Positions 12,601-59,387 of a stretch of 63,145 nt of DNA are shown here, piece by piece; within the stretch, counting starts at the first letter, position 1, and the number at the start of each line of letters is the position of its first letter. Below the pieces are notes generated by a model. That model made no database searches, was not told the origin of the DNA, and was given only the letters and a program-made list of their open reading frames with translations. Source of the stretch: a virus. The stretch is taken from positions 1 to 63,145 of the IMG/VR virus record IMGVR_UViG_3300039354_000525; one strand, 5' to 3'. The translations under genes were made by a program, and so were the position numbers.

Positions 12601-14150
12601 CAATTTACGCTAGTACAGGCATGATGGTACCTTACGAACCTCGTGGCACAGACACTGTGCCTGCTATGCTAACACCGGGTGAATTTGTTATTAATCGTAA
12701 AGCTACATCGCAAAATCGTAGCTTATTAGAATCTATTAATAGTGGTCGTGCATATAGTAAGGGTGGAGTTGTTTATGCTGCTGATGGTGGTGAAATGCCA
12801 GAGCAAGGAACATTAGCATTTCAAGGTGCTTTACAGGCAAAAGCAAAAATGGATCAAGTCCCTATTAGAACTGCTTTCGAAGCATTAAAGTATTATGGTG
12901 ACAAATATATGTCTTCACCATTAAAGGGTTTGATGGAAGTAGAAAGAGCAGAAGCAAGAGCAGAAGCGGAGACAGGCGTTGTCGGGAAGAGGAAACCGGG
13001 AGCTACACCAGATAATATTGAACGAGATGGGCCACCAAAGAGCGCAGGTGATGATAATACATATGATCTTACAAATCCAAGTGATAGACAAGCAGTTGGA
13101 GGTGATGCATACAAGACTTTAGAACCTCATGTGAGTAATAAAGAAAATTTAGCTAAATTAGTTTCAGTAGGTATGAGAAACACACATTTAGAACAGAATG
13201 CTGATAAACTAAAGCGAAAAGGACGCGCAGCTGAAGCAATGACTAATACATATACTGGCGCGACTAGGATTACTGTTCCTCAGGCCAAGGTGAGTAAAGC
13301 TACAATGTCTCATGAATTTGGTCATGCTTTACAAGGTCAAATACCAGGAGGCAATAAAAAAGTTGGTGGAGGGTCGGCAGTACAATCGTGGATGGATAGT
13401 TATACGGGTAAACTGAATGCTGGTGAATTAAAAGATGATCACATGACTCCCGGTGAGGGTGGTATTGGCTATTATAGCAAAGAGCAAATGTTGCGAATGC
13501 AACAGGAAATTTTTGCTACATTGGTTCAACTCAAAAATCAAGACCCGTCAAATTTTGGAAAGACAGGTGGTGGGGCTGCTCTTACTGAAGTTATGCGAGC
13601 ATATGGTTTTAATCGTGGTGGAGCTGTTCATTTTCGTCCACAAGGTACAGATACAGTACCCGCTATGTTAACTCCTGGTGAATTTGTGGTCAATAAAGAT
13701 GCAGCACAAAAGAATTTAACTTCATTACAAGCTATGAATCAGGGTGGTAGAGTATCATACTTAGCTGGAGGTACCCCCGGTGTTGGTGGCTTATTAGAAC
13801 TTGATAATGCTGTAAAACCTCTGATTTCAGCTTTCCAAATGTTAACTCAAAATATGGGTCAAAATGCTCCTGCAAATACTCCTGCTGGGGGTGTATCTAG
13901 TAATAGTTTAGATACTAGTGGATTACAATCATTTACTGATACTTTTGGAAATTTAATTAGTCAATTAAACAATATTGCATTACCTCAAATACCATCAGTT
14001 ATTAGTTTACAAATGGCTCCAGCCAGCCTACAGGTTGATATCACCGGAGCAGAAGCACTTGGAGCATTAACACCAGATTTAGAAAAATTAGCAGAACGAA
14101 TAGTTAGTAGAGAACTTAACAGGTTCCAACAAGACAATATAGAAAATTAA
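3612..14150 (+). CDS. tape measure protein, 3512 aa
   Basis: Sets tail length and is packed inside the tube. Residues ~125-480 resemble the TP901-type tape measure core: alanine/serine-rich helices with repeated 'aaxxG' turns. Five short motifs of the form (T/Q)DTVPAMLTPGEFV occur at about residues 543, 801, 1971, 3014 and 3347, usually followed by glycine-rich GGV turns. Gly/Ala-rich hydrophobic stretches lie at ~1110-1175 and ~2150-2280 and could contact or cross the host membrane on DNA entry. Long coiled-coil-like regions fill 1200-1900. Between the first two motifs is a separate globular region (~640-760). A HEFGH zincin-like motif is at 3234-3238 with a glutamate in QEIFA at 3299. By the usual ~1.5 A per residue rule the tail could be about half a micrometre long. 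Shine-Dalgarno AAGGT; the start is well placed after the terminator. Confidence 0.93.
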   Translation: MAKGFNLTAEINLRGPSNIRQVVGNIRKQLGTINTNVNVKIDKNTAKQISVANKAFINFNKTLKQTQTLSNTTSASLSKLATSAQQLSTSLASAPQKINQVAQSANKIAKSNQQAAQQTQVLSSEFAEFGRQSALAVRRFAAFATVTGVIYKVSNAVTSATKDFLEFEKELIKVAQVSKISVGQLDFLTNNITRLSSGLGVASNDLIGVSRTLAQAGLSATDTSKALQALARSALAPTFDNMNRTVEGSIALMKQFGISANQLEGALGSINAVAGSFAVEAGDIITAISRAGGVFASASNGVSQGTDALNEFIAVFTSVRSTTRESAETIATGLRTIFTRIQRSDTIDSLKAFGVTLTDLEGKFVGPYKAIELLSKGLRTLDPRDLRFGRIVEELGGFRQIGKVIPLIQQFGTAQKALNVAQQGSGSLARDAAVAQQSLANQIAKVQEQFTALIRSIAGSDGFRDLTKGVLDIASALISVADAAKSALPALTAIFAIKGFQALTQFGGGFLGGIKKGGGSLNSGGYVRGYAKGGVVPGTGNTDTVPAMLTPGEFVIRKKAVADIGSEKLHSMNRYASGGVIKPNDSIGYVVAQQEVTPDTKSINKELTVGQLPKGVNFKGKKSLAPDDTFTIQADYRKLAVSSPKEAGFAGEQATSKALQSVDTFLNSGKGKTGFPKNPASNISGNKSAQEALNGYVFEEIVGKYIGEAERGKAPFDFINKSSLAGSLKNDPVPNYLDAARSYKSPEDMTTKILNANVEQGLGLTASGFQQTNDQAKKKKQAERVVKQKTVEKARGGSVQDTVPAMLTPGEFVINKKSAQKLGAAKLHSLNKADKVKGYNKGGFVQYFKNGGKVEGLDDSVNAALSRKDIALTNSVLAKLPGSIMSLVNATDTFGTAILSSDPKTAAAQVKAYTRAMSKGKTQSEALTAAINSGIAETRKYSSSTSKVQKVLDAQAAGINSRSKSQGYSAGTADTRTSGSIVAGRAAAGGLSRSGDDMALLARESDAAAKKLQAYFKPQAAGQALTAFQATLIKTGSTSRAMASAMAQGTKATKLLPPATFSLINSFKNLNTSMPTFNKAIQAATGAFQRAKTYIGKLSANPMVKNMSKFGTILAFAGPMLADRVGDMIGGEKGAGIAGGASGATSALAVGSMLGPVGAVAGALAAIPLAFDGYNKGVAKKKIELENIKLDKFAKAVESAMNALNKNANDASAGRTVSQNIQNTQKSADKKAGAERDKAGSGLFSAIGEYFSLGMIGQEYNTDTRSGDEQAAARSNRFAGAAQQSQAYIDQQIEATGSLANVEKSQNAIGKTTDDLVRTITKANPAYQAEVQAILEANMAEELKAKKIDKLTAKYDKETVDKNKQAVRDKALQAASAKLSKGMTVVSSSLQRTMNNYQESLARGSAQIDKANAAIQKIATGATGYTVSLKSSEVLKSPNQFSREEQNAAIKQTSSFAGEDAGFMQQAARFSLDADDIISKAGVAAQKDPSKRGTVAQDAINQLTKRLEATMGRNQMTDDIRKELQEGLKSQQGKDGQGEVDLQKLIDGSSIGKALDFSKSSLDSLIAGAEALRNALQLAANGADLYAKQQQKIVANQARYQQTILKSDMALKQALGKDVGVGEKISARMQVASTTAGVESPSQLGGDFLLKKEESLKLEVAQINQSLDNLANNTDATNTKANKSYMSLVKRLGETESQLGRTSSAIQNLPSIIEGNINDVIGEIGRISQIEAQQKQAQADFATKLVTSTPEELGEINKSSKILNNALAGNVRTIQQSNAAQKAYHQTIRNGGTVQEANSSAQKAFAQETGSALDMFNNMVSMSGASGDDINSTRADLLETFAKGQGQGVENTPMFKQILKNLREPSGESKQLTVLKDIYNELKTKLISATGNANQSIENKQDDILNKSETEFLSALNNITLNFNQSQLDQMKNLGIEPPRTSTKTTQLKSKGGPIYANKGTYVDYQPRGTDTVPAMLTPGEFVVNRQATQKNRGLLEAINNSGKKSRAYSRGGVIYAEGGVVLDDAILNGNVDFNKPMMDYSQIANDGSVKPAKPRAFDINAYEAPDGSQAGIKVGKGGKSLTTNAQIEKELQSEFTEKSTGEAAEGAVKKNKGIIQKTKDFLNPRNSPIVQRSKKPLGKFVKEKVLKDIDGGSLKSVKGGTGLVATIAANVGGQYIAKHLGADQTTAENVGNATGMASEIALNHISGASAKARALGTTGNVASAAKGLAINAGIDIARTGYELVKDPGKFHQKKMQDATYVDADGVTVGNVVKGGLAGLARPADTIAQFGYSTVGMISDRAAAAQNEEKTVSMQQKSVASAGRNPYLAGLGPRAATYVNMASDLQIRRERKEIDEANYFDQKSKLPKITADDLAKTVIDPSWWTGSGSIQKQVNTILAGRVEIATDTKRSRARIQDERRASFDEQIKTDHDNLRREIGIYDDPDYYDLIKMAAKEPGIGWNDPPTRDQLNWISDTHYQAEGIREEDKRKKHIETTKRLGLPMGADQDDIARAEFRVQQGQETEAARGARNKTGFYPLEQVNRHKRVTGFTNPQFLPPGALEAEVGTELGQRQGLTRQIDKKMASKPGIFGDGDGMSSSDKLGFENQKNAELRSLHAKRDGINKKIESKLTSSKLDDKETRDSMWKSHNRGEVLQDRRDQRKAEHDAKKKRAEQGKSKAEATIAAAKWTGLISSVNPDKLRFTRPDQLKAFRQNVINRVRNEFGIERDKPDSEVSRILKKVGVNGDLVDKLMKPYSSTDIANVYESMVMQGGFRSTKASQYAAAFARAQRAGGIANTSPEDQEILKNADPKLKKEVGKKFQATISKNMTVLERVNRTLISKGLIKNKTESDPGGTNGAQGALDAPDMSMRAAVERAKIVQNLVTSGVVGPNDSASAKAIRGYGYGPLATFLYPNVQAEPTNKAMDINTEGNKNKEEKTKTTDPVTTEKLSPSFINSSYNTPPHSAKNIQATKPTSLDDYRKNGPNFVGPLNRQKGGPIYASTGMMVPYEPRGTDTVPAMLTPGEFVINRKATSQNRSLLESINSGRAYSKGGVVYAADGGEMPEQGTLAFQGALQAKAKMDQVPIRTAFEALKYYGDKYMSSPLKGLMEVERAEARAEAETGVVGKRKPGATPDNIERDGPPKSAGDDNTYDLTNPSDRQAVGGDAYKTLEPHVSNKENLAKLVSVGMRNTHLEQNADKLKRKGRAAEAMTNTYTGATRITVPQAKVSKATMSHEFGHALQGQIPGGNKKVGGGSAVQSWMDSYTGKLNAGELKDDHMTPGEGGIGYYSKEQMLRMQQEIFATLVQLKNQDPSNFGKTGGGAALTEVMRAYGFNRGGAVHFRPQGTDTVPAMLTPGEFVVNKDAAQKNLTSLQAMNQGGRVSYLAGGTPGVGGLLELDNAVKPLISAFQMLTQNMGQNAPANTPAGGVSSNSLDTSGLQSFTDTFGNLISQLNNIALPQIPSVISLQMAPASLQVDITGAEALGALTPDLEKLAERIVSRELNRFQQDNIEN
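5229..13695 (+). repeat. five dispersed TDTVPAMLTPGEF-type motifs in the tape measure gene
   Basis: Protein-level repeats start near bases 5238, 6012, 9522, 12651 and 13650. The core TDTVPAMLTPGEFV (DTVPAMLTPGEFV in the second copy) is almost invariant and is followed by a basic helix (K/R-rich) and, in the last three, by a shared N-(R/L)-(G/S/T)-x-L pattern. At DNA level the codons differ between copies, so the protein sequence is being conserved. The motif is familiar from tape measure proteins of environmental phages; its function is not known to me. Confidence 0.85.
13200..13620 (+). other. zincin-like metalloprotease domain within the tape measure protein
   Basis: Codons 13311-13325 encode HEFGH, an HExxH zinc-binding motif, preceded by the helical context KATMS. 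A candidate third ligand, glutamate 3299 in QEIFATL, lies 65 residues downstream. This fits zincins whose third ligand is distal. The domain sits between the fourth and fifth repeat motifs, near the end of the tape measure that would reach the cell first or last. Activity is inferred. It might process the tape measure protein or act on the host envelope. Confidence 0.6.
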
Positions 14151-38667: not shown

Positions 38668-39456
38668 TTAGTCCTCTACTTCTATAGACTTACTTTTAGA
38701 ATTATCAATTTTATGAATAGCTTCAACTAATTTAGTATATAGAATAGAAGCTCTAGATTTTGAAAAGTCATGGGTTTGTTTGACTCTAATCAGCTTCAAT
38801 CCTTTTCCTATAATTAGTCCTGTTTTCTTCTTATCATACTTTTGGTTTCTGGCTAAAACATCATTTCCCCAAACTGGAAGAAAATGAGAAGGACCATCAA
38901 CCTCTAAAGCTATATTCATAGTAGGCAGGAACAGGTCTATTTGCAACTTTGTGTTCGATAAGATTTGCTCTTTATGAAAATCTACTTTGAAACCATCTTT
39001 AATAAGTTGTTCTAAAAGATAGTGTTCTAACTTAGATCCTACTTTACTACTATTTCTAACCGCTTGATTAGCTAAATTTAAACGATTTTGTTTTTCGTCA
39101 TTACTTAAACTATTCCATAGCTTTTTAGAATTGCGTTTTCTTCTTGCTAATTCTTTTTCGTCTATGTTATCCCAAGCAGCCATAACAGACTTACCAATTT
39201 TATTTTTAGTATTATCTGTACGTTTAGTTCCTTTGGTTGGGTGTTTGTGTGCTCCAGTAGCTAAAGCATTTGATTGTGCTTGACTCTTATCTCGAATTGG
39301 GACTTTGTACTTAATAGCATCACGCCTAATTTTGTTAGCATATGTGTTTAATTGTTCAGCCATTGTAGAAAAACTCAGTTTATCTTCTACATACATTTTT
39401 GTTATAATTTGTTGTTTGTCGTAATCTGAATAATTATTGTAATTTTTGTATGACAT
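38668..39456 (-). CDS. free-standing homing endonuclease, EDxHD (Vsr-like) type
   Basis: 262 aa. Modules in order: an N-terminal helix-turn-helix (~residues 10-50), a NUMOD3-like DNA-binding segment (TKNKIGKSVMAAW, ~83-95), and a Vsr-like nuclease domain (~140-250). Catalytic candidates are Glu144, Asp174 (QIDLFLP), His191 in EVDGPSH and Asp208, in the order known for EDxHD homing endonucleases such as I-Bth0305I. It sits between the annealing-protein gene and the glycosylation island, with no intron or intein in view. It overlaps the next gene by 23 bases. A small repair nuclease is the alternative. Confidence 0.65.
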   Translation of the reverse strand: MSYKNYNNYSDYDKQQIITKMYVEDKLSFSTMAEQLNTYANKIRRDAIKYKVPIRDKSQAQSNALATGAHKHPTKGTKRTDNTKNKIGKSVMAAWDNIDEKELARRKRNSKKLWNSLSNDEKQNRLNLANQAVRNSSKVGSKLEHYLLEQLIKDGFKVDFHKEQILSNTKLQIDLFLPTMNIALEVDGPSHFLPVWGNDVLARNQKYDKKKTGLIIGKGLKLIRVKQTHDFSKSRASILYTKLVEAIHKIDNSKSKSIEVED

Positions 39457-45533: not shown

Positions 45534-45905
45534 TTAGAATGCCACCTTTTCTTGAGACTGATCTTTCTTCTGACGAGAAAGCTTAGTAATCTTAGAAAAA
45601 TTATTAACTCTTACTTTTAAAGAATTATGCTTAACGCCATCCTTTTCCCAAGAGTCATTTCTAAGAGATCCTTCGACCATTACTAAGTCACCCTTCCGGA
45701 AAGATTCTCCGATAATTTCTGCACCAGTATCCCATGCTTCGCACTGAACAAAAGTGGTAATCTTATCTCTTTCACCATTAGATTTGGTATATTCCCTAGA
45801 TACCGCAATAGTAAAATTAACAACTGAAGTTTGCTTGCCATTAGTATTGACACTTCGAACTTCAGGGTCACGAGCTAAATTGCCTCGAAGAAGATTAATA
45901 TTCAT
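45534..45905 (-). CDS. ssb: single-stranded DNA-binding protein
   Basis: 123 aa, bacterial-type SSB. The OB fold is evident from LRGNLARDPEVRSV, VVNFTIAVSREY, TTFVQCEAWDTGAEII, KGDLVMVEGSLRNDSW and LKVRVNNFSKI. The protein is short and ends in KVAF. The acidic C-terminal tip (DDDIPF type) that recruits partner proteins in cellular SSBs is absent, so phage replication proteins may contact it differently. AGGAGG lies before the ATG. The gene has its own candidate promoter and leader and a downstream hairpin, so it is likely expressed at high level independently of neighbours. Confidence 0.93.
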   Translation of the reverse strand: MNINLLRGNLARDPEVRSVNTNGKQTSVVNFTIAVSREYTKSNGERDKITTFVQCEAWDTGAEIIGESFRKGDLVMVEGSLRNDSWEKDGVKHNSLKVRVNNFSKITKLSRQKKDQSQEKVAF

Positions 45906-46017: not shown

Positions 46018-46048
46018 ATAATACAACTTGACAGTATTATGTCAAGTT
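46018..46048 (-). promoter_or_regulatory. candidate ssb promoter overlapping an inverted repeat
   Basis: On the - strand TTGACA (46045-46040), a 16-base spacer and TATTAT (46023-46018) form a good sigma70-like promoter ahead of ssb. A 9-bp perfect inverted repeat (AACTTGACA / TGTCAAGTT, 46025-46033 and 46040-46048) covers the -35 element and spacer and overlaps the stop codon of the polymerase C-terminal gene. It could be an operator, or a weak terminator for the polymerase gene. The ~105-base leader that follows contains a possible 7-bp stem (GAGATTT / AAATCTC). Confidence 0.5.
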
Positions 46049-47655
46049 TTAGGTATATAAGCCTTTTGAACTATTAGAGAGTCTCCATTTCTATTTTTAT
46101 TACCTTTAATAATAATTACATTATTGTCAAATAGTATATTTCTATATTGTTTGTACGCTTCGGGGAAAAAGATCACACTATCAATCACACCGTAGCTATC
46201 TGCTAATGAAACGAAAGCCATCTCTGCTCCAGGATTCTTACCAGATTTTGTTTTAGTCACACTTAAACTAGATATTTCTCCACATAAGATAATCTCATTT
46301 AGCATGGTATTTTTGTATTCTTTACAATTACAATTGGTCATAGTGACATCATACATATCAACTTTAGAACAAGTAATACCACAACCTAAAGAATTTTCTT
46401 CTGCATCAGAAATCCATTCTGCACTATCTTCTAAAGAGTATGGTGGATTTTCTATAGTGTTAAGCAAGCCTAATACTTTGTCTTTTCTTCTAGATGTAAT
46501 TTTATGTTCATGATACAATTTATAAATACATTCATATAGGTTTTTACAAGATGACATATTATTAATTACAAATTCTGATTCTTTTTTCGTAAGTTCACTG
46601 GCTATACTATAATCAAAAAGCATAGATGTTCTAGTATTTTTAACAAAATCTATTCCACCACTACTAATCAAAGCCTTAGCTGCTGTAGAATTAATAACTA
46701 ACAAGACATGAAACAGTAGCTCACACCAAGTAATTTTATCAAAGTCTATTTGTTTTTCTTCTATAAGATTAGTCAATTTAGTAAAAACAGAATTACCAAA
46801 ACCTTTAATGTCTGTCAGACCAAAATAAATTTGTTGATTTCTCATGACAAAAAGAGAATTCATATTTCTAATGTCTGGTACAGCAACGCTGATATCCATC
46901 TCCATAGCGTTCTGAACTAATGCTTTTATCTCTGCTTTAGGATCTAACTTATCTTTTGCGAATCTTAAATAAGAAGCAAAAAAGATTTTAGGGAAATGCG
47001 CTTTTGTATAAGCAGATAAGTAGGCATTATAAGCATAGCTTACAGCATGACTTTTATTAAAGCTGTATCTTTGACTTTTCTCAATCCATCCAAAAATTTC
47101 TTCTGCTTCATCCTTATTAACAATCTTTAATTTTTTAGCTCCACTAATAAATTTCTTCTTTAGTTTCGCCATTTCTTCTGGTTTCTTTTTACCGATAGCT
47201 TTTCTAAGGTTATCTGCTTCCCGTAAATCAAATCCAGCAATGTGTTTAGCAATATTCATCGCCTGTTCTTGATATATCATTTCGCCATATGTAGTTTTTA
47301 ATACTCCTTCTAATGCTGGATGATAATAGTCAACAGACTCTTCTCCATTTTTTTTGTCTATATAGTGGTTAGAAACACTTTTGCCATCTCTAATAGCCTC
47401 CAGACATCCTGGTCTAAGGATACTAATTAAGGCAGAAAGCTGTTCTACATTTTCAGGCTTAAGTTTTTTAGACATCGATTTGCCAAGCCTAGACTCTAAT
47501 TGGAAACATCCTTTAGTATTACCCTCGGATAGTAATTCCCAAGTTTTACTACAATTAAAGTTTATATCATCATTAATCGGATCAAAATTTATGCTCAGGG
47601 GTTCCTTACTAAGAACATTAAATGAGCATCCGCAAGGGTATTTATACTTATCCAT
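46042..47655 (-). CDS. dnaE: DNA polymerase III alpha, C-terminal half (split dnaE)
   Basis: 537 aa. It carries the family C polymerase regions after the catalytic aspartates: CFQLESRLG (usual VFQLES), ALISILRPGCLEA, the fingers helix GEMIYQEQAMNIA, YSFNKSHAVSYAYNAY, helix-hairpin-helix-like segments, and a C-terminal OB domain (NEIILCGEISSL, FVSLADSYGVIDSVIFFP). The first ~35 residues, with Cys8, Cys10 and Cys34, have no counterpart in E. coli DnaE and may dock the N-terminal half. It overlaps the exonuclease gene by one base. Confidence 0.88.
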   Translation of the reverse strand: MDKYKYPCGCSFNVLSKEPLSINFDPINDDINFNCSKTWELLSEGNTKGCFQLESRLGKSMSKKLKPENVEQLSALISILRPGCLEAIRDGKSVSNHYIDKKNGEESVDYYHPALEGVLKTTYGEMIYQEQAMNIAKHIAGFDLREADNLRKAIGKKKPEEMAKLKKKFISGAKKLKIVNKDEAEEIFGWIEKSQRYSFNKSHAVSYAYNAYLSAYTKAHFPKIFFASYLRFAKDKLDPKAEIKALVQNAMEMDISVAVPDIRNMNSLFVMRNQQIYFGLTDIKGFGNSVFTKLTNLIEEKQIDFDKITWCELLFHVLLVINSTAAKALISSGGIDFVKNTRTSMLFDYSIASELTKKESEFVINNMSSCKNLYECIYKLYHEHKITSRRKDKVLGLLNTIENPPYSLEDSAEWISDAEENSLGCGITCSKVDMYDVTMTNCNCKEYKNTMLNEIILCGEISSLSVTKTKSGKNPGAEMAFVSLADSYGVIDSVIFFPEAYKQYRNILFDNNVIIIKGNKNRNGDSLIVQKAYIPKT

Positions 47656-48341
47656 TATTTAAAAGAATCCTTGAACTTAATGTTAGCTGCCAATTTCCTA
47701 TGTAATTTCATAAAACGAATCATAACTTCTGCACTATCACGAATATCTTTTAAAGCATCATGTGCTCCTTCTTTAGATATTCCAAAATAATCTCTAAGAG
47801 AATCTAAAGTATAGCTTTTTAAATCACGATTATATTCAAACCAATAAAAAACAATATTCATGATGTCTACAACATCTCTGGGGAAAAATATATCTGTTTT
47901 CTTCTCTTTGCTAATATTACCATACTTATTACTTAGTCTATCTATAATAGGCAAATCAAATCTATAGATATTGTAACCAGCAGGAATAGGAGCAGAAAAC
48001 TTACTTTTCTTAGTTGATCTGGTATGATACTTATCTAAGTAATCAACAAACATCTTCCAAGAATGTTCTTGAGAAGGATAAGATCTCCATTTATCCATAA
48101 TGTCTGCCTTAGAACAGCCTGCTACTTTTGCATGGAAATCTACGACATCTGTTGTATATTCGTAATCAGGGTCTTTAGCAATTGTTTCTGGTTTAAAATG
48201 AACATTAAATTCAGAATTGGGTATAACCTCTAATTTCATAGGGTCTACCATTACAGCGGCTAATTGTACCGGACTACAAACTTCTGGATTAACACCGTCT
48301 GTTTCAAAATCAAATACGCAAATTTTATTATAATTAATCAT
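47655..48341 (-). CDS. dnaQ: DnaQ-like 3'-5' proofreading exonuclease
   Basis: 228 aa, DEDDh family. Exo I is VFDFETDGVNPE (Asp and Glu), Exo II lies around GYNIYRFDLPII, and Exo III is GAHDALKDIRDS with the His and final Asp. It should proofread for the family C polymerase, as epsilon does for alpha. The gene sits exactly between the two polymerase halves and overlaps both neighbours, so the three are made together. No clamp-binding motif was identified. Confidence 0.9.
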   Translation of the reverse strand: MINYNKICVFDFETDGVNPEVCSPVQLAAVMVDPMKLEVIPNSEFNVHFKPETIAKDPDYEYTTDVVDFHAKVAGCSKADIMDKWRSYPSQEHSWKMFVDYLDKYHTRSTKKSKFSAPIPAGYNIYRFDLPIIDRLSNKYGNISKEKKTDIFFPRDVVDIMNIVFYWFEYNRDLKSYTLDSLRDYFGISKEGAHDALKDIRDSAEVMIRFMKLHRKLAANIKFKDSFK

Positions 48342-48519
48342 TATCTGCCACTTCTACTTCGTGTATAGGTACTACAAAATGTTTTTGATTGGGATCATTA
48401 TTTATGGTTGCATTATAAACTTTACAACAAGTTATTCTTATGTCATTAATTTTTATCATTTCTTGAGAGTTATAGGTAAATTCAGTACCTACATCAATAT
48501 CTTTAAACTTTTTTTGCAT
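48334..48519 (-). CDS. small protein between polymerase halves
   Basis: 61 aa, a small beta-barrel-like sequence (FKDIDVGTEFTYNSQEMIKI, then ITCCKVYN and HFVVPIHEVEV). It begins 3 bases after the polymerase N-terminal gene and overlaps the exonuclease gene by 8 bases. Similar 'VGTEF' beta proteins are common in phages, but I know no function. Its fixed place in the polymerase unit makes a polymerase or exonuclease accessory plausible. Confidence 0.65.
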   Translation of the reverse strand: MQKKFKDIDVGTEFTYNSQEMIKINDIRITCCKVYNATINNDPNQKHFVVPIHEVEVADND

Positions 48520-48521
48520 AG

Positions 48522-50399
48522 TTAAACAGTCTCCTCTTTGAGTAAATCTTGAATTGTCATAATCTTATCAAGCATAGCTACACCCAAAATATCAAACTTG
48601 ATAATACCGATAGATTCTAAATCTTGCATTTCCATACCAGCAATCATCTGTTTATTTTTTGAATCATATACCATAGGACAAACATCGCTAAGGGCTTGAG
48701 AACTAATAGCAATACCAGCAGCATGCTTGGACTGATTAGACTTAACTCCCTCTAATCTTATAGCCTGTTCAAAGCGTTTGGCAAGTGGTCCTTGTAATTC
48801 GCCTTTATCGTCTACAAAACACCATTGTTTAAGTTTCTCTCCGCTATTTTCTAAAGTCCATCTTATAATTGATGCTTCGCCAGTATCCTCTTTCATTTCC
48901 TGCAATTGATCAGCAATTCGTGCTTCATCAGGAATACTTTTGGTAATTTCATTCATTTCAGCAAAAGATACATTACCATAAACTCTTAAAACATCTTTTA
49001 ATGCTCCTCTACCCTTAATAGTATTAAAGGTAATCATTTGTGAAACTTTGTTTTCACCATATTTATCTTTGATATACTGAATAATTTTCTCTCTTTTATA
49101 GATAGGAACATCTACATCAATATCCGGCATAGATATATGTTCTGCAGTATTACGTCCAGCATTATAAAATCTATCAAACATAAGATTATATTTAATAGGA
49201 TCTATATCTGTAATACCAATCAGATAAGAAACCAAACATCCAGCAGCACTACCTCTACCCGGCCCTGGTAGCCAACTATTATCTCTAACATGATTGACTA
49301 TGTCCTGAACAATTAAGAAGTAGCTAGATAAATCTGCTCCCTGTAAAACATCCAGTTCATATTTAATTCTTTCTATATAAAGATGATGTTCTGATTCTGG
49401 AATTTCTGTAACTATCTTTTCTTTCCAGCCTTCTCTACATAATTGTCTAAGATATTCTGCATCAGTATATCCTTTGGGACATGAAAAAGGAGGAAGATTA
49501 GGCTTACTAAGAATATCATATTCTTCACACATAGAATCTATCAAATTAGTGTTTTCTATTTCTTCTTCAGTATGCAGTTCTTTAATTTCTTCTTGTGATA
49601 AAATGTGATAATTGTCAGATGTAAAAAAGCACTTCATAGGTACGTCTTCGTCTAAACTCAATTTACGATTGATGTCAGTAAATGTAGTTTTTAAATTATT
49701 ACACAATAGTATTCTCTGATCTACAGCATCGCTTTTCTTGCAGTAGTGTGCATCGGGAGTACATATGACTTTTGTGTTTGTTAATTTAGATAACTTTCTA
49801 ATACAATCTGTTAAGTGTATCTGTGGTTCATTATTATCTCTATCCATTAATTGGGCTTCTAGAAAAAAGTTTTCTTCGCCAAAGATATCTTTACATTGAC
49901 GAATATGTTCTTTACCTATATTTTCCCAATCAGAAATGACAGCATCGTTTTCCATGATCTTGTTGGCGATAGTGGAACCTAAATGACCGCAAAAACCAAT
50001 CATATTTCCATCCATCATTTTACCTAGTGTTTTTAAATCTAATCTAGGCTTAAAATAATAATGCTCTGGACGATTAGATTCCGATACTATTCGGATTAGA
50101 TTTCTCCAACCATCATAATTTTTAGCTAATATTAAAAAATGACTAAGTGTACGATTCTCTTTATTCTTAATGGTAACATCATCATCGCAAATATACAATT
50201 CGCAACCTAAGATGGGCTTGATCCCTCTCTTTTTCATGGCACCATAAAATTTAATTGCTCCAGCTATATTGCCATGATCTGTTAAAGCACAAGACTTAAC
50301 GCCTATTTCTTCACAACGATCAGCAATTTGTTCTGGTTTAGATAAACCATCCAATAAACTGTACATACTATGTACATGCAAAGGTATATATTTTTTCAT
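48522..50399 (-). CDS. dnaE: DNA polymerase III alpha, N-terminal half (split dnaE)
   Basis: 625 aa. The PHP domain comes first (HVHSMYSLLDG, ALTDHGN, ILGCELYI), then the palm: GPGRGSAAGCLVSYLIGITD, MPDIDVDVP with catalytic aspartates in 426-430, and MITFNTIKGRGALKDV. The third catalytic aspartate is Asp603 in IIKFDILG. The protein stops 22 residues later, before the VFQLES motif, which begins the separate C-terminal gene. All catalytic aspartates are thus in this half. A stretch between TDHGN and GPGRGSAAG fits the usual PHP-thumb spacing. Confidence 0.92.
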   Translation of the reverse strand: MKKYIPLHVHSMYSLLDGLSKPEQIADRCEEIGVKSCALTDHGNIAGAIKFYGAMKKRGIKPILGCELYICDDDVTIKNKENRTLSHFLILAKNYDGWRNLIRIVSESNRPEHYYFKPRLDLKTLGKMMDGNMIGFCGHLGSTIANKIMENDAVISDWENIGKEHIRQCKDIFGEENFFLEAQLMDRDNNEPQIHLTDCIRKLSKLTNTKVICTPDAHYCKKSDAVDQRILLCNNLKTTFTDINRKLSLDEDVPMKCFFTSDNYHILSQEEIKELHTEEEIENTNLIDSMCEEYDILSKPNLPPFSCPKGYTDAEYLRQLCREGWKEKIVTEIPESEHHLYIERIKYELDVLQGADLSSYFLIVQDIVNHVRDNSWLPGPGRGSAAGCLVSYLIGITDIDPIKYNLMFDRFYNAGRNTAEHISMPDIDVDVPIYKREKIIQYIKDKYGENKVSQMITFNTIKGRGALKDVLRVYGNVSFAEMNEITKSIPDEARIADQLQEMKEDTGEASIIRWTLENSGEKLKQWCFVDDKGELQGPLAKRFEQAIRLEGVKSNQSKHAAGIAISSQALSDVCPMVYDSKNKQMIAGMEMQDLESIGIIKFDILGVAMLDKIMTIQDLLKEETV

Positions 50400-50416: not shown

Positions 50417-51460
50417 TTAATCTGCACTTCCCGGAGCCTTGTAGTGTCCTATATTATAACCTTCAGCCTGATACTCGTCAATCACACTATCCATACCTTT
50501 GATGATTACGTCGTGTTTTATTTGTTCGCACTTAGTCATTGTGTCTCCAACGTTTATTAATTGACCTTGTCTATATTCAACAATTGGGAGATAAGGACTA
50601 TCCTCAAACGTACTTTTACCAAAATGACACAGTTTAGTACATTTCCAACTTTTATTAAGTGGAGGGTTTTTTGTGTCTCGAATAGTTTCAAATTTTCTTT
50701 TCAACATCATTTCTACTTGATATAAATTATCTTTACTAAAACAAACAGAAAACATTCCACCATCATTAATAAAGTCAATAGACACCATAATATTTTCAAT
50801 ATCAGGATAAAGATGATGTACTGCATAATAATACAACATTAATTGAGGATCATCATGTAGTTTCTTTAAGGTCTTTTCTTGACCAGTAGCCCAATCTAAT
50901 CGTCTACCTGTTTTCCAATCAATTACTTCATATGTATTATCATTTACTTTTGTAATTAAATCAATGGTACCTTTTATAGATAATTGTCCTTCTAAATGAC
51001 CTTCTTTAGTATCATAGCTATACTTAGCCCAAGGTTTATCAATAGTAATATCAAAATGTTGTTCAGGTTCAACTATCTCTCTGTTTCGAGGGTCAAACAT
51101 ACCATCGCCATATTCAATTGCTTTGTATACCCATTTATGACAATCTTTGTAGTCTCTAGCTGTCCATTCATGGGTTGTCCATTGAGAAGTATAATACTCA
51201 TATACTTGCTCTGTCATATGATCTAGATTATAATTTGTAATATCTACTGCACCTATGATATCATCTTCAAAATATCTATTATTATTTTGTATATTCAATT
51301 TGACAAAAGCTAAAATTTCTAAAACCTTATGAACAATAGTTCCTTTATCTGCTTTTTTATTAGACGGTGATCTATGACCTAAATTATATTCTATAAAGTA
51401 TTGCATAGGACACATGGAATGTGTACCATACGAACTACTTCTAATGTATGTTACTATAAT
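50417..51460 (-). CDS. Cas4/RecB-like PD-(D/E)XK nuclease (ATT start)
   Basis: About 347 aa. Core motifs are GTIVHKVLE (helix with His), EVIDWKTGRR (Asp and Lys of the active site) and PQLMLYYYAV (QxxxY helix), as in RecB/Cas4-type exonucleases. Four cysteines (in CPMQ, the CTKLCHFG pair and TKCEQ) could hold an iron-sulfur cluster or zinc. The first ATG (51415) would cut away TYIRSSSYGTHS just before the CPMQYF motif. The frame stays open to an ATT at 51460, 8 bases after AGGA, overlapping the stop of the kinase gene; no ATG, GTG or TTG lies upstream in frame. Likely DNA end-processing in recombination or host DNA breakdown. Confidence 0.7.
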   Translation of the reverse strand: MIVTYIRSSSYGTHSMCPMQYFIEYNLGHRSPSNKKADKGTIVHKVLEILAFVKLNIQNNNRYFEDDIIGAVDITNYNLDHMTEQVYEYYTSQWTTHEWTARDYKDCHKWVYKAIEYGDGMFDPRNREIVEPEQHFDITIDKPWAKYSYDTKEGHLEGQLSIKGTIDLITKVNDNTYEVIDWKTGRRLDWATGQEKTLKKLHDDPQLMLYYYAVHHLYPDIENIMVSIDFINDGGMFSVCFSKDNLYQVEMMLKRKFETIRDTKNPPLNKSWKCTKLCHFGKSTFEDSPYLPIVEYRQGQLINVGDTMTKCEQIKHDVIIKGMDSVIDEYQAEGYNIGHYKAPGSAD

Positions 51461-52044
51461 GGTAAAATTCCTTTATTTATTAGAAAGTCATGAATAATTT
51501 CGTTTTGCTTTCCAATAGTTAATTCATCATTATCAATAACCAAATTAAAGTTTGTAGCATCGTACCTGTTAGTATCTAATGACTCTTCGCTTGCGTGTGT
51601 TGAGTTGTATGGGTTTCTATTAAGTTTAATAACCAGACCATCACTATCTTTAATAGCCTCAACCTCATTAGGAAATCTGCAGTCTGCGATGATTGCCAAG
51701 TCTGGGTTTTCATGTTTAATCTTTTTAATTGTTGCACTAGCCCAAACATTGTGTTGTATTTTCCTAAATATATCTGTACCTACATATTGCATAACTTCCC
51801 TAGCTGTCATCTGATTATCCGTATCAGGCCAATAGCAATCTACTAATTCGTTTTTGGATTCATCAGAACCATAACACTGATGATATGTCAAGCCAAACAC
51901 ATTCATACAAACATCTGTTTTTAAAGGATCAGCAAAATTATATATTTTACCTATGCCTAATCCACGATTTTCAAAAATGTTTTTTACAAATTCAGCGGAT
52001 GTTGTTTTACCAGATTGTTTTCTACCAGCAAATGCTATAATCAT
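51454..52044 (-). CDS. deoxynucleoside monophosphate kinase
   Basis: 196 aa. The P-loop is GRKQSGKTTSAEF at residues 7-19. IYNFADPLK and REVMQYVGTD are typical of phage dNMP kinases, and AIIADCRFPNEVEAI supplies the Walker-B-like strand and the DxRF signature. It phosphorylates dNMPs to dNDPs for phage DNA synthesis, working with the reductase and deaminase encoded upstream. It overlaps the primase gene by 4 bases. Confidence 0.85.
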   Translation of the reverse strand: MIIAFAGRKQSGKTTSAEFVKNIFENRGLGIGKIYNFADPLKTDVCMNVFGLTYHQCYGSDESKNELVDCYWPDTDNQMTAREVMQYVGTDIFRKIQHNVWASATIKKIKHENPDLAIIADCRFPNEVEAIKDSDGLVIKLNRNPYNSTHASEESLDTNRYDATNFNLVIDNDELTIGKQNEIIHDFLINKGILPL

Positions 52045-53195
52045 ACTACACCTCTTATATAATCTTTGATTTCCATATCAATTTCTTCTGAAGTCATATC
52101 GGCAATATCTGCTTTAGTAATAGATGGAACAAATACCCTATATGTATTTTGACATTTTTCTTTAATTTGCTCTGCTGCTTTTCTACCAGCATCATCATTA
52201 TCTGTTAAAACTATAATAGTCATTGCTCCTGATGAGTCTAGAATAATCTTTTGACGATCACTTAATGCCGCACCAAAAATACCTAAACTATTATGTATGT
52301 CATTTTCTTCTAATTTCCAAACATTGCCAGGACTTTCTACTAAAATAGCAATACCTGTATCTTTTATATGTTTTTGAGCAAACCAAAAATTATACAAAGA
52401 ATTTTGACTTTTAAAGTTAGCACTATGTTTCCATTTAGAATATAAATATTTTTGATGATCTTGTGGACAATCATTATCAGGATCATGAAAACATCCACAT
52501 TTATCGCATTTCTCAAATATACTTCTACCTGAACAACCTATCATATATGTATAATCAGGATCATAAATAGGTGCAACAACTCTGTTAGACATTTCTCTAT
52601 TAGGATTATCACATAAACCTATATCATACTTATCTAATATCGCTGGAGTAAATCCTCTATTAATATAATACCCTGCTGGTATTTTCAGTAAGCCTCTAAT
52701 ACGATTTCTAGTCAAACAGTTGGTTGTATCAACCTTTGCTGTGTTTTTAATTTGATTCACAGCATTAGTAAATCTATTTTTATTTCTGGCTTCTGTAGAT
52801 ACCTTAATATCTTTTAAATCTTTTTTAAGAAACGAAGTGACAAAGTCAATAGTCTCTTTAAAAGTGCAGGTCTTATCACCCTCCTCACTCCACTGATGTT
52901 TTCTATTAGATAATAATCCTCTGACAAAGCCTATAATAGATCCTTTAAAACATTTTTCACATCCATGTGTTCTACATTTCCAATTTCCTCTATAGGAGTC
53001 TCCTTCAACATATAGATTCAAAGCACTCTCATTATCTCCTTCATGTATAGGACATGCCATACTGATCATTTTACCATGATCCTTATAGTCTAATTCAAAG
53101 TGTTCCAATAGATCTTCTATATTATCACAAAGGTCGTCGCACAAAACTTTTAGTTTTGCTTGATCATTCAAAGGGGATTTCTTGGTCATCAGCAT
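52041..53195 (-). CDS. dnaG: DnaG-type DNA primase
   Basis: 384 aa. The N-terminal CHC2-type zinc domain has CPIHEGDNESA and CRTHGCEKC. A second cysteine cluster (CDKCGCFHDPDNDC) is inserted in the middle. The C-terminal TOPRIM domain shows AILVESPGNVWKL (Glu) and IIVLTDNDDAGRKAA (DxD). It is shorter than bacterial DnaG and lacks the C-terminal helicase-binding domain. It starts 32 bases inside the helicase gene, with AGAGGA five bases before the first ATG. Confidence 0.88.
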   Translation of the reverse strand: MLMTKKSPLNDQAKLKVLCDDLCDNIEDLLEHFELDYKDHGKMISMACPIHEGDNESALNLYVEGDSYRGNWKCRTHGCEKCFKGSIIGFVRGLLSNRKHQWSEEGDKTCTFKETIDFVTSFLKKDLKDIKVSTEARNKNRFTNAVNQIKNTAKVDTTNCLTRNRIRGLLKIPAGYYINRGFTPAILDKYDIGLCDNPNREMSNRVVAPIYDPDYTYMIGCSGRSIFEKCDKCGCFHDPDNDCPQDHQKYLYSKWKHSANFKSQNSLYNFWFAQKHIKDTGIAILVESPGNVWKLEENDIHNSLGIFGAALSDRQKIILDSSGAMTIIVLTDNDDAGRKAAEQIKEKCQNTYRVFVPSITKADIADMTSEEIDMEIKDYIRGVV

Positions 53196-54627
53196 TGTCG
53201 TCCTCTACTATAAATCCATCGTTATTATTTTTATTATTACTCATTACTTCTAATTTAGTTTTACCCTCAGTAATCTTAGCACACCAGCCTTTCATATTAC
53301 AATTAATATAATCGTTATCGTCAAGACCTCCACCGTGCCTACTAATTAAAGGAACTAATTTTCTATTACCGTTATCTGCTCCATCTTCAGCAATTTCTTC
53401 AGATGTTTTGCGTTTAAATATACTGAAATTACTACACAACCAAACGATTCTATCTGAACCAGAAGCTGTGTCTGTGCTTTCTTTTGTAATACCATCTCTG
53501 TTTAATTGTATAAAAGCAACTACAGGCACTTTATATCTTGTAGCAAAATTATGTAAAGCCGTCATCATAAAACCAAGAACTTGGTATTCTTTCATGTCCT
53601 GACTCATTCCAGCACTATCCATTAGTTTTAAATAGTCATAAAATATAACACAGTCTTTAGCAGTACCATCCTCATTCAATCCGACTTCTTTGATTAACCA
53701 TCTTCTCATAATAGATAGTTGATCTTCAAATGGCTTACCAGCAATAGACTTATAGAATAATCGTGTGTTTTTTAAGTCTTTGACTGCTTCTTTTACCTTC
53801 ATATCTTTATTAGGTGTTTGAGCGAACCTACCTGTTTCAATGTCATTAATTTCAATCTCTGTCGTCATTGCCAGAACTCTATTGATATGGTCTTCTTTAG
53901 TCATTTCTGTGTCCATATTCAATACAGGAATCTGTAATTTGTTGGCGATATGGAAACCCATATTATCAGACAATAATGTTTTACCAGTTTTAGGTCTAGC
54001 AGCAATCACATTAACTGTGCTTCGTCGTAATCCTCCACCAATAGCCTGATCATATACTGGAAAGCCTGTAGGTATACCTACTTGATCTACTTTATTATCT
54101 ACCAGACCTTGAATATATTCATCTAAATCGTCACTAATAGATACAGGATTATTATCAACATCATTAAGCATATTTGTAAAATCAAATACAGTATCTTCTG
54201 CTATGCCCAAAATACTACCGATAGACTCAGTTCCTGTGACATCTAAAATTTTATCTTGAGCTTTATCTAATTGTTTTCTTAATAATCTTGCTATTTCTAG
54301 CTTACGAATTTTCGCAGCAAATTTACGAACATTATCTAAATTGACAGGAAAATCTAAGACAGCTTTAAGATGTTGTACTTCTTCCTTTTTATTAAACACA
54401 TTAGAAAGACCTAACTCTTCAGCAGTAGAGAAAATTAATGCAACATCAATAGAGACTTTGTGATCTCTTTCAAAGATGGTTTTTAAACACTGGAAAATAA
54501 TTTTATTACTGTCAACAGTAAAAGAAGTATCTTGCACTATATCTGCTATATCAAGATATGCATCATCTCCATATTGACAAACTCCAGCAAGTACTGCTCT
54601 TTCTGCTGCTGTATCCGAAAGAACCAT
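53164..54627 (-). CDS. dnaB: DnaB-like replicative helicase
   Basis: 487 aa from the ATG at 54627. The N-terminal helical domain (SDTAAERAVLAGV) is followed by a RecA-type motor: Walker A ARPKTGKT at about 210-217, a DTEMTKEDHINRVLAM segment (H1a), VIFYDYLKLMD (Walker B), FIQLNRD (H3) and PLISRHGG (arginine-finger region). It unwinds DNA at the fork and should pair with the adjacent primase. The chosen start forms TAATG with the upstream stop and has GGAG at good spacing. The longer open frame would add seven unlikely residues. Confidence 0.92.
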   Translation of the reverse strand: MVLSDTAAERAVLAGVCQYGDDAYLDIADIVQDTSFTVDSNKIIFQCLKTIFERDHKVSIDVALIFSTAEELGLSNVFNKKEEVQHLKAVLDFPVNLDNVRKFAAKIRKLEIARLLRKQLDKAQDKILDVTGTESIGSILGIAEDTVFDFTNMLNDVDNNPVSISDDLDEYIQGLVDNKVDQVGIPTGFPVYDQAIGGGLRRSTVNVIAARPKTGKTLLSDNMGFHIANKLQIPVLNMDTEMTKEDHINRVLAMTTEIEINDIETGRFAQTPNKDMKVKEAVKDLKNTRLFYKSIAGKPFEDQLSIMRRWLIKEVGLNEDGTAKDCVIFYDYLKLMDSAGMSQDMKEYQVLGFMMTALHNFATRYKVPVVAFIQLNRDGITKESTDTASGSDRIVWLCSNFSIFKRKTSEEIAEDGADNGNRKLVPLISRHGGGLDDNDYINCNMKGWCAKITEGKTKLEVMSNNKNNNDGFIVEDDNADDQEIPFE

Positions 54628-55004
54628 TATCCAGCACTCCTTGCACAAGCATTACATTTGTATCTATCTGCACTATCTGTTAATATGGCAGGATTAACCT
54701 CTTCTGTTTTGTGACACACTCTACATGTAACTTTGACAGTTTTAAATGTTCGAGTTCTTGGAGTAGGGCCATACTTATTTAATTTTTTATCAATCTCAAT
54801 GTCTGCTCTGTGTAAATTCTTTTCTGCCATACTATCAAATTTGTTTTCGATAAATTGTGGCTTTCTACTACCTCTGGTTCTAATAACACTTTCAGGTTCA
54901 GCTTCTTTTGCAGTCTCAGGTGGGCTATCAGATTCCTCTGGCAGCATGCCCTTTAGCATAATAATCATTTGCTTGATTTGATTTTCTGAAAGATTCTCAC
55001 CCAT
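54627..55004 (-). CDS. small zinc-ribbon protein upstream of helicase
   Basis: 125 aa. The N-terminal helix (ENQIKQMIIMLKGML) is followed by an acidic/proline linker and a basic central region. A C-terminal zinc ribbon uses CRVC and CNAC. It is coupled to the helicase gene through a TAATG overlap. It is probably a DNA-binding replication accessory such as a helicase loader, but no family supports this. Confidence 0.55.
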   Translation of the reverse strand: MGENLSENQIKQMIIMLKGMLPEESDSPPETAKEAEPESVIRTRGSRKPQFIENKFDSMAEKNLHRADIEIDKKLNKYGPTPRTRTFKTVKVTCRVCHKTEEVNPAILTDSADRYKCNACARSAG

Positions 55005-55497
55005 TTTTCACCATCCCTTTTGCTCTTTGTATTGAAATTAGAATATCTGAAAGATTTTTTAATGAACTAGATAAGTAAGTTAAACGATCCATACGCTGTT
55101 TAGCAAATGTCACAATCTTATTTAATTGGTTTGCTTTGTCATTGTGTTTAATAGCTTGAGAAGATTTTTCTATGTATCCATAACCTTTGTAATTATTAAT
55201 TTCATCTGCAATTGTAATCTTTATTTCATTTTCAGCCCAATTCATACGAGCTTGTTCACGATTTAAAGTTCTTTGAACATGGAAACCGTATTGGCCAATT
55301 CTATATGCAATTTCTGCACATTGTACTATATCTAATTTTTCAAGTACATTTCTATTCATTGTTAAATATTCTTGTAATTCTTGTTCTGGTAAACTATCAT
55401 TAGAATAGTTAGGAAGACCAATGCCTTTTTCATAATCATCTAAAACACTATCCCAAAATTCGACCTGCTCTTTAGAGGTCTTTGCTGTATTCATCAT
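54997..55497 (-). CDS. helical protein of unknown function
   Basis: 166 aa, almost wholly helical and charged, with coiled-coil-like heptads in the second half (LNKIVTFAKQRMDRLTYLSSSLKNL). No enzyme motif. It overlaps both neighbours in the recombination and replication operon. It might be a mediator or loader, by position only. Confidence 0.55.
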   Translation of the reverse strand: MMNTAKTSKEQVEFWDSVLDDYEKGIGLPNYSNDSLPEQELQEYLTMNRNVLEKLDIVQCAEIAYRIGQYGFHVQRTLNREQARMNWAENEIKITIADEINNYKGYGYIEKSSQAIKHNDKANQLNKIVTFAKQRMDRLTYLSSSLKNLSDILISIQRAKGMVKNG

Positions 55498-55906
55498 TTA
55501 GAATTCTCCGCTTCCACTGTTCAATGTCTTCGTTATATGGTAACTCAATATATTCAATACTATTTAAGTCACACCATTCTTGTTTTTCTCTATCTCTTTG
55601 TTTGTGTTTAGCAAAACCCATCATAGTCTGATGAAAATGAGGAATGAACTTGTAGTGTTGTTCTCCGTGAACTTCTATACATTTATTGTTCAAAGGTAGG
55701 AAAAAATCTAAATATACTGTGTGTCCTTTTTTTAGAGGTACTGTTATTTCTTCGCACACTTGTAAAGTAGGAAAACATTCTTTAATTAGTTGTCTTGCTG
55801 CAATATGGTATTTAGATCTAGTATTTCTTCCAGAAGCGCGAGTAATGCCTCTTGAAAGATTTAACTTTACAATACTTCCATCTAGGTCAACAACAGTCCT
55901 ACTCAT
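55472..55906 (-). CDS. Vsr/EDxHD-like nuclease next to recA
   Basis: 144 aa. The nuclease fold shows VCEEITVPL, VYLDFFLP with Asp67, CIEVHGEQHY with Glu78 and His84, and Asp105 in KQRDREKQEW, followed by IEYIELPYNE. The order matches the nuclease domain of the homing endonuclease candidate at 38668-39456, with His34 or Ser31 where a Glu is expected first. No HTH or NUMOD module is present. Its overlap with recA suggests a recombination or resolvase role rather than homing. Confidence 0.6.
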   Translation of the reverse strand: MSRTVVDLDGSIVKLNLSRGITRASGRNTRSKYHIAARQLIKECFPTLQVCEEITVPLKKGHTVYLDFFLPLNNKCIEVHGEQHYKFIPHFHQTMMGFAKHKQRDREKQEWCDLNSIEYIELPYNEDIEQWKRRILNDEYSKDL

Positions 55907-58458: not shown

Positions 58459-58812
58459 TCATCTCCATTTAGGTTTATATTTAGGCTTTGCCATTCGTGA
58501 CATGCCCTTGGGTAATTCTTTAGTTAATTCATCTTTAAGTTTATTGTCTTGATATTGGGTATGCTTACGATCTAAGTCTGCTTTTTGGTCTATTGTTAAC
58601 TTATCTCTATTTCTATTTGCTAAATCCCCAATAGTACCAAGTTCCGAATCAGATTTTACTACAGAACTACTGAGTGTTAACATGTCATCATAATCTCTCG
58701 GACAAGTTCTTTTACAGCTTGGACATTTTTGTATATCTTTATAATCGTTCATAGTAGCAAACAAGTCGAAAGACTTCATGCACAATTCGCAAAAATATGT
58801 ATAAGTTGGCAT
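58459..58812 (-). CDS. FmdB-type zinc-ribbon protein
   Basis: 117 aa. Cys8-x2-Cys11 (FCELC) and Cys30-x2-Cys33 (CPSC) with the surrounding MPTYTYFCELC start are typical of the FmdB family of putative regulatory zinc ribbons. A polar, lysine-rich tail follows. It overlaps the HNH gene by TAATG. The target is unknown; a regulatory or nucleic-acid-binding role is usual for the family. Confidence 0.7.
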   Translation of the reverse strand: MPTYTYFCELCMKSFDLFATMNDYKDIQKCPSCKRTCPRDYDDMLTLSSSVVKSDSELGTIGDLANRNRDKLTIDQKADLDRKHTQYQDNKLKDELTKELPKGMSRMAKPKYKPKWR

Positions 58813-59387
58813 TATTTTATAAAATCTTTAACGTACAGTTTCCATTCGGTTGGAACATCTTTCCTTATAGTAAGCAACTGATGCATTACATGCAAGTATT
58901 TTCTTGTCTTTTGTGGAACTATAGGTTGGTTTTTGAGTGTCATACCTGCCTGTTGTATAGTTTTGTTACCCTTTCTACAATTACATTTAAAACAGGCCGT
59001 TACGATGTTAGTCCAAGACGTAGATGATGTTTTAGAGTGAGGCCATTTAGATTTTGGAATCACATGGTCATACGTTAATTGATTTATATTAGGTTTAGCA
59101 CCACAATATTGACATGTATAATCATCTCTTATAAACAAATTCTTACGAGAGAATATTACATTATGACTATGTACTTTAAAAAACTTAGCAGTTTTTACTA
59201 CAGCAGGAATTTTTAAATGTTTTCGAACACCAATTATATAGTCATCATTATAATAATCTATAATTTCTATGCCAGAGTATTGAAAGTTTGTATATCGAAA
59301 AGACCATATCATAGCTTTTCTCCAATCGATAATACCAATTGGAGAATAATCAGCATTTAGGACTAAACAATCTTTATGATTTGTCAT
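58812..59387 (-). CDS. HNH endonuclease
   Basis: 191 aa. The zinc-bound HNH core is TCQYCGAKPN (Cys92, Cys95), LTYDHVIPKS (Asp107-His108), TNIVTACFKCNCRKG (Asn127 and two further cysteines). The N-terminal part, VLNADYSPIGIIDWRKAM, is a known companion of this HNH group. The spread-out domain is typical of free-standing HNH proteins in phages and bacteria; it may be a homing-type gene or a packaging or repair nuclease. Its start overlaps the phoH stop (ATGA). Confidence 0.85.
   Translation of the reverse strand: MTNHKDCLVLNADYSPIGIIDWRKAMIWSFRYTNFQYSGIEIIDYYNDDYIIGVRKHLKIPAVVKTAKFFKVHSHNVIFSRKNLFIRDDYTCQYCGAKPNINQLTYDHVIPKSKWPHSKTSSTSWTNIVTACFKCNCRKGNKTIQQAGMTLKNQPIVPQKTRKYLHVMHQLLTIRKDVPTEWKLYVKDFIK

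What the first reader, a model, noticed from the sequence alone, without database searches (positions are those of the whole stretch)
46042..50399. Family C DNA polymerase split in two, with exonuclease and a 61-aa gene lodged between the halves
The N-terminal gene keeps the PHP domain and all three catalytic aspartates (426-430 cluster and 603) and stops 22 residues after Asp603. The C-terminal gene begins with about 35 extra residues bearing three cysteines and then resumes at the region just before CFQLES. Neither fragment ends or begins with intein motifs, and the known cyanobacterial split-intein site (SFNKSHA) is intact in the C-terminal half, so a two-subunit enzyme assembled without splicing is more likely. 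The DnaQ-like exonuclease and a small beta protein are encoded in the break, which suggests a polymerase-exonuclease-accessory unit.
Basis: partly seen in the sequence, partly recalled or inferred. Interest (0 to 1): 0.82.

Follow-up and report, generated by a model that had tools for sequence, protein, structure and literature searches.

The report
Phage replicative DNA polymerase in two pieces
A large, still uncultivated group of aquatic phages makes its only detectable DNA-copying enzyme as two separate proteins with a proofreading-nuclease gene lodged between them, and since a few close relatives carry the same halves fused into one protein, the two pieces very probably snap together into one working polymerase.

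Summary
The DnaE-type (family C) polymerase is cut exactly at the palm/fingers boundary (E. coli DnaE ~578/579). N half = PHP + palm with all three catalytic Asp; C half = fingers + HhH + OB. Among 240 related IMG/VR loci, 127 distinct loci hold N, a DEDDh exonuclease and C, always in that order and never fused. All 45 contigs tested (51-231 kb) have one palm and one fingers domain; the 27 also searched for family A and B polymerases had neither. Both halves are under strong purifying selection and carry no intein motifs, although a few relatives have real split inteins inside the halves. A further search found two sister lineages in which N and C are one 1,139-aa protein with the exonuclease just upstream: a natural fusion arguing that the halves form one enzyme. 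I conclude a non-covalent two-subunit polymerase with a dedicated proofreader. The 61-aa protein is a fast-evolving small beta-barrel, absent from many members; its role is unproven. Split phage polymerases are known (Aeromonas phage gp43A/B; jumbo-phage minimal Pol III alpha), so this is a new, widespread variant of a known kind. Complex formation and activity were not tested.

The parts
48522..50399 (-). DnaE N half, 625 aa: PHP domain + palm/thumb; catalytic Asp 428, 430, 603; PHP metal-ligand positions retained
   Evidence: Pfam PF02811, PF07733; alignment to E. coli DnaE; conservation
48334..48519 (-). 61-aa small beta-barrel protein, invariant CC; role unknown
   Evidence: phrog_2183 E 2e-4; alignment; AF2 pLDDT 91.8; weak fold match to eIF5A/EF-P N-domain
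47655..48341 (-). DEDDh (DnaQ-like) 3'-5' exonuclease, 228 aa, conserved C-terminal KFK.SF motif
   Evidence: PF00929, phrog_192 polymerase exonuclease subunit, invariant D11 E13 D129 H194 D199 F227
46042..47655 (-). DnaE C half, 537 aa: 35-aa extension with CGC...C, fingers, HhH, OB; no tau-binding domain
   Evidence: PF17657, PF14579; AF2 pLDDT 92.3, pTM 0.84; Foldseek to bacterial Pol III alpha E 1e-22
45534..45905 (-). SSB, conserved downstream neighbour
   Evidence: PF00436 E 3e-24; same place in relatives
50417..51415 (-). PD-(D/E)XK exonuclease, conserved upstream neighbour
   Evidence: PF12705; synteny
51454..52044 (-). deoxynucleoside monophosphate kinase, same operon
   Evidence: PF21448, phrog_139; synteny
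52041..53195 (-). DNA primase, same operon
   Evidence: Toprim, phrog_47; synteny
53164..54648 (-). DnaB-like replicative helicase, same operon
   Evidence: PF03796, phrog_19; synteny

Best explanation
The phage replicates its DNA with a family C (DnaE-type) polymerase made as two polypeptides that assemble without splicing. The N subunit (PHP + palm/thumb) carries the metal-binding aspartates; the C subunit supplies the fingers, the HhH and the OB domain. They dock along the palm/fingers interface that covalent DnaE already has. Translational coupling of the four overlapping genes keeps them stoichiometric, and the exonuclease encoded in the break is the proofreading partner (epsilon-like). 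Shown: gene order, separateness, conservation, catalytic residues, absence of inteins, existence of fused sisters, a confident fold for the C half. Inferred: physical complex, activity, proofreading by the exonuclease.
For: 127 distinct loci (109 clusters at 95%), all in the order N, exonuclease, C, none fused; 45/45 contigs have a single palm and a single fingers domain (one palm and one fingers interrupted by a further insert) and no spare DnaE; no family A or B polymerase in the 27 records tested, 26 of them relatives of 105-231 kb; dN/dS 0.03-0.09; catalytic Asp, fingers GKK motif and exonuclease DEDDh conserved; natural fusion protein of 1,138-1,139 aa in two sister lineages of the same clade with the same neighbours; the C half is predicted to fold confidently alone; a cultured phage, phiT1, is split at the same boundary. 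Established precedent: split gp43A/B of Aeromonas phage 25 co-purify and are active, split NrdA of Aeh1 is active (review PMC2988022).
Against: No biochemical data and no complex prediction (the folding tool takes single chains only). The contigs carry no completeness values and may be fragments, so a missed extra polymerase cannot be excluded absolutely. The exonuclease-polymerase link is by neighbourhood only.
Confidence: 0.85

Rival explanations
1. The halves are joined after translation (split-intein trans-splicing) or at the RNA level (trans-splicing intron halves).
For: Real split inteins with endonuclease genes occur inside the halves of relatives: L116/L127 at GRG|SAAG, L051/L066 at SFNK|SH; L030 has a contiguous intein.
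Against: No intein domain in the window halves or visible at the break in the aligned termini; junctions are 2-nt gaps or overlaps with own stop and start codons, leaving no room for intron halves; about 860 nt with two full genes lie between.
Confidence: 0.04
2. The split polymerase is a decaying or auxiliary enzyme and the host Pol III replicates the phage.
For: No beta clamp (PF02768) found in the same records, and the C half lacks the tau-binding C-terminal domain.
Against: Strong purifying selection, catalytic residues kept, same operon with helicase, primase, SSB and dNMP kinase in relatives. Decay would not be conserved across a clade whose members are only 40-50% identical.
Confidence: 0.07
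3. N and C bind different partners and are not one enzyme (for example N as a PHP nuclease or primer-terminus binder, C as a modifier of host Pol III).
For: Intact PHP metal positions would allow a nuclease role.
Against: Contigs have both, one each; fused sisters exist; neither half has a complete active site alone.
Confidence: 0.04

Closest known systems
Bacterial DNA polymerase III alpha (DnaE; E. coli, Taq, M. tuberculosis)
   Same: PHP, palm, fingers, HhH and OB order, catalytic Asp, fold
   Different: Two genes, cut at Ec 578/579; exonuclease between; no tau-binding domain
Split gp43A/gp43B (family B) of Aeromonas phages 25 and 44RR; split NrdA of Aeh1; T4 gp60/gp39 ('genes in pieces', review PMC2988022)
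   Same: Essential phage enzyme permanently in pieces; assembly into an active enzyme shown for phage 25 and Aeh1
   Different: Different enzyme families; described for single phages; break associated with a homing endonuclease or an untranslated insert; here a replication gene (exonuclease) occupies the break across a whole clade
Minimal split Pol III alpha of group 2.2 jumbo phages (PMC7824862)
   Same: Family C polymerase core in two proteins of a phage
   Different: Per that paper: only the core catalytic parts, distantly located genes, alongside a family B polymerase; here PHP, fingers, HhH and OB are all kept, genes are adjacent, no family B polymerase found
Rossellomorea phage phiT1 gp20/gp19/gp18 (PV767480)
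   Same: Same palm/fingers break, small ORF between
   Different: 34% identical, no exonuclease in the break; outside the clade; common or separate origin of the split unresolved
Other cultured DnaE splits: Cellulophaga phiST/phi13:1, Gordonia LittleFella, Microbacterium Crestdrop, Lactobacillus ATCC 8014-B2, Bacillus phage G
   Same: DnaE in two or more genes
   Different: Cut elsewhere (PHP/palm or inside palm), some with a homing endonuclease in the gap; some may be intron- or intein-related
Cyanobacterial split-intein DnaE
   Same: DnaE encoded by two genes
   Different: Joined by trans-splicing at another site; no intein here

Membership tests
DnaE-type family C DNA polymerase | PHP domain followed by Pol-beta-like palm with three catalytic Asp | tested here: met
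DnaE-type family C DNA polymerase | Fingers domain, HhH and OB | tested here: met
   (on the C protein)
DnaE-type family C DNA polymerase | All domains in one polypeptide | tested here: not met
   two ORFs, 127/127 loci; met in fused sisters L312/L316
DnaE-type family C DNA polymerase | Polymerase activity | not testable with these tools
   no bench data
Genes-in-pieces phage enzymes | Ancestrally single gene now in two ORFs | tested here: met
   one protein in outgroups and in fused sisters
Genes-in-pieces phage enzymes | Break caused by homing endonuclease insertion | tested here: inconclusive
   endonuclease-like ORFs in the break only in L165 and L077, judged by eye and not confirmed by Pfam
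Genes-in-pieces phage enzymes | Halves assemble into active enzyme | not testable with these tools
   indirect only: fusion sisters, selection
Split-intein DnaE | Intein N and C parts at the break | tested here: not met
DnaQ/epsilon-like DEDDh exonuclease | DEDDh residues | tested here: met
Group 2.2 jumbo-phage split Pol III alpha (PMC7824862) | Lacks other Pol III domains, co-occurs with family B polymerase | tested here: not met
   PHP and OB present; no PF00136 hit in 27 records

The most novel reading that the evidence does not exclude
An ancient, stable two-subunit replicative polymerase whose fission at the palm/fingers hinge was fixed in the ancestor of a large (probably Bacteroidota-infecting) phage lineage and later reversed by re-fusion in one branch, with the proofreading exonuclease gene moving between the inside and the upstream side of the gene; the split would then be a maintained design (regulable assembly of a holoenzyme) and not an accident.
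Probability: 0.35. Interest if true: 0.75.

Novelty: new variant of a known kind. Interest (0 to 1): 0.62.

Why it matters
A replicative polymerase that is naturally two-part and intein-free across more than 100 distinct phage loci is a ready-made split polymerase, and the fused sisters give a matched covalent control. It makes testable how much of family C chemistry depends on the palm-fingers tether, how a proofreader is recruited, and how essential genes are broken and re-joined. Gene callers will report these phages as having two partial or duplicated polymerases.

Tried and rejected
(1) Sequencing or assembly error: rejected, same break in 127 distinct loci. (2) Split intein or intron at the break: no domain hit, no room. 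(3) Hidden intact DnaE or another polymerase in the same contigs: not found. (4) Three cysteines as a universal zinc clamp joining the halves: conserved in 74 of 92 non-redundant C halves, but whole sublineages lack them. (5) 61-aa protein as a universal subunit: rejected, missing in distant members. (6) Cultured relatives via the exonuclease: none. (7) phiT1 relatives in IMG/VR: none found. (8) Bacillus phage G as the same break: no, its break lies ~26 residues upstream, before the third catalytic Asp. (9) Corynebacterium phage P1201 gp59/gp58: break in the same linker but in overlapping frames with intact 60%-identical relatives, so a frameshift or sequencing error cannot be excluded. (10) Whether the fused lineage is ancestral or re-fused: best trees nest it among split rows or leave the point open (0% of bootstrap trees have split as one clade), but the AU test does not reject split monophyly (p 0.069 and 0.063).

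Full report
OBSERVATION. The window is an IMG/VR virus record of 63,145 bp. On the - strand a replication operon runs helicase, primase, dNMP kinase, PD-(D/E)XK nuclease, N half, 61-aa ORF, exonuclease, C half, SSB. The N half ends 22 residues after Asp603; aligned to E. coli DnaE it ends at about residue 577-578 and contains the equivalents of D401, D403 and D555, while the fingers homology resumes at about 579 in the C half. The C half starts with a 35-residue extension (YxCGCxF...C) absent from ordinary DnaE. Junctions overlap or lie 2 nt apart.

GENERALITY. Searches of IMG/VR with each half, with a distant member and with an alignment gave loci L002-L240. After removal of duplicates 127 distinct loci hold N, exonuclease and C, and all 127 have the order N, exonuclease, C; no fused ORF occurs among them. 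The neighbours are also constant. In 45 contigs searched whole there is one palm and one fingers domain per contig; G038 (palm) and G024 (fingers) show two pieces because of a further insert. The 27 records searched further (the window and 26 relatives of 105-231 kb) have no family A polymerase, no family B polymerase and no beta-clamp third domain. The nearest cultured-phage matches are about 35% identical, and the exonuclease has no match there: this is an uncultivated lineage. Two MAG contigs carrying the locus are labelled Flavobacteriales and Chitinophagia, suggesting Bacteroidota hosts (weak, may be binning). The second of these MAGs also has an ordinary long dnaE frame.

FUNCTION. dN/dS against near relatives is 0.035-0.093 (N), 0.049-0.088 (C), 0.029-0.075 (exonuclease) but 0.13-0.50 for the 61-aa gene. 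DEDDh residues of the exonuclease are invariant even at 30% identity, as is a C-terminal Phe. PHP metal-ligand positions are retained, with the usual Cys replaced by His (assignment of ligands from my knowledge of the Taq and M. tuberculosis structures), so the N half may have its own nuclease site as well; inference only. The C half alone is predicted as a compact protein (pLDDT 92.3, pTM 0.84) and matches Pol III alpha structures (E 1e-22).

ROSETTA STONE. A search with a distant N half found L312, L315, L324 (99% alike) and L316 (88%), in which N and C form one open frame of 1,138-1,139 aa, with the exonuclease directly upstream and the same primase, kinase, PD-(D/E)XK, SSB and downstream neighbours (the kinase and glycosyltransferases judged by eye). 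They fall inside the clade with 100/100 support. This is comparative evidence that N and C are parts of one enzyme. Best trees do not have the split rows as one clade, which would mean re-fusion, but the alternative (split once, fused sister) is not rejected (AU p 0.069 and 0.063). Because the exonuclease changes place between upstream and inside, one possible route is tandem duplication of exo-dnaE with complementary loss; homing-endonuclease fracture is another, as the break or the halves of some relatives carry endonuclease-like ORFs. Neither is shown.

INTEINS. The window halves have no intein signal. Relatives do: split inteins with endonuclease ORFs between the pieces at GRG|SAAG of N (L116, L127) and SFNK|SH of C (L051, L066), and a contiguous intein with HNH in C (L030). 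The lineage is thus a frequent intein target, which makes their absence at the main break more telling.

61-AA PROTEIN. It lies between N and exonuclease in 155/155 loci where it was detected together with all three genes, is a confident small beta-barrel with weak fold similarity to the eIF5A/EF-P N-domain, but is absent in distant members, where other small genes occupy the place. I give no specific function with confidence; an RNA- or protein-binding accessory is a guess.

KNOWN COMPARISONS. Split phage enzymes are known: Aeh1 NrdA, T4 topoisomerase, Aeromonas phage 25 gp43A/B; the last two proteins co-purify and are active (PMC2988022). A minimal split Pol III alpha is described in group 2.2 jumbo phages (PMC7824862); it differs in domain content, gene distance and the accompanying family B enzyme. 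A survey of phage polymerases (PMC11348598) shows no mention of split PolC in the passages retrieved. Cultured phages with split DnaE annotated but, as far as I found, unremarked: phiT1 at the same site; phiST/phi13:1, LittleFella, Crestdrop, ATCC 8014-B2 and phage G at other sites. Literature coverage is limited to the open-access library.

VERDICT. Real, conserved, a new and widespread variant of a known kind; two-subunit polymerase at 0.85, exonuclease as proofreader about 0.7, 61-aa accessory about 0.3.

Noticed in passing
L116:4041-7117, L127:4035-7128: N half cut again at GRG|SAAG by a split intein with a free-standing nuclease ORF between the parts (fractured gene); phage G gp329 appears, by eye, to carry an intein at the same GRG|SAAG site.
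   Followed up: partly
L051:13967-16850, L066:10730-13677: C half cut at SFNK|SH by a split intein with an endonuclease ORF, a few residues from the cyanobacterial DnaE split-intein site.
   Followed up: partly
L030:10726-13092: Contiguous intein with HNH domain in the fingers (RPG|CLEA).
   Followed up: partly
window 46042-47655 (C8, C10, C35, C429, C444): CGC, C35 and C444 are all present in 74 of 92 non-redundant C halves; in 13 of the 18 that lack CGC, C35 and C429 are gone too (C444 in 7). Possible metal site in the C half; phylogeny confounds it.
   Followed up: partly
window 48522-50399, N-half residues 8-231: PHP metal-ligand positions intact although a DnaQ-like exonuclease is encoded next door: two potential proofreading sites.
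   Followed up: no
window 47655-48341, C-terminus: Conserved short KFK(D/G)SF tail with invariant Phe in the exonuclease; candidate docking motif.
   Followed up: no
L077:12671-14557: Extra ~70-residue insert in the fingers after RPGCLRAMS, absent in sister L165.
   Followed up: no
window 38668-39456, 55472-55906, 58812-59387: Three HNH/homing endonuclease-like genes elsewhere in the window.
   Followed up: no
window 3612-14150: 3,512-aa ORF in a block of long + strand ORFs; most flanking + strand proteins tested have no PHROGs match; this one was not searched.
   Followed up: no
L173:7914-8462, L162:6763-7347: Uracil-DNA-glycosylase-like gene occupies the N-exonuclease gap in place of the 61-aa gene (by eye).
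   Followed up: no
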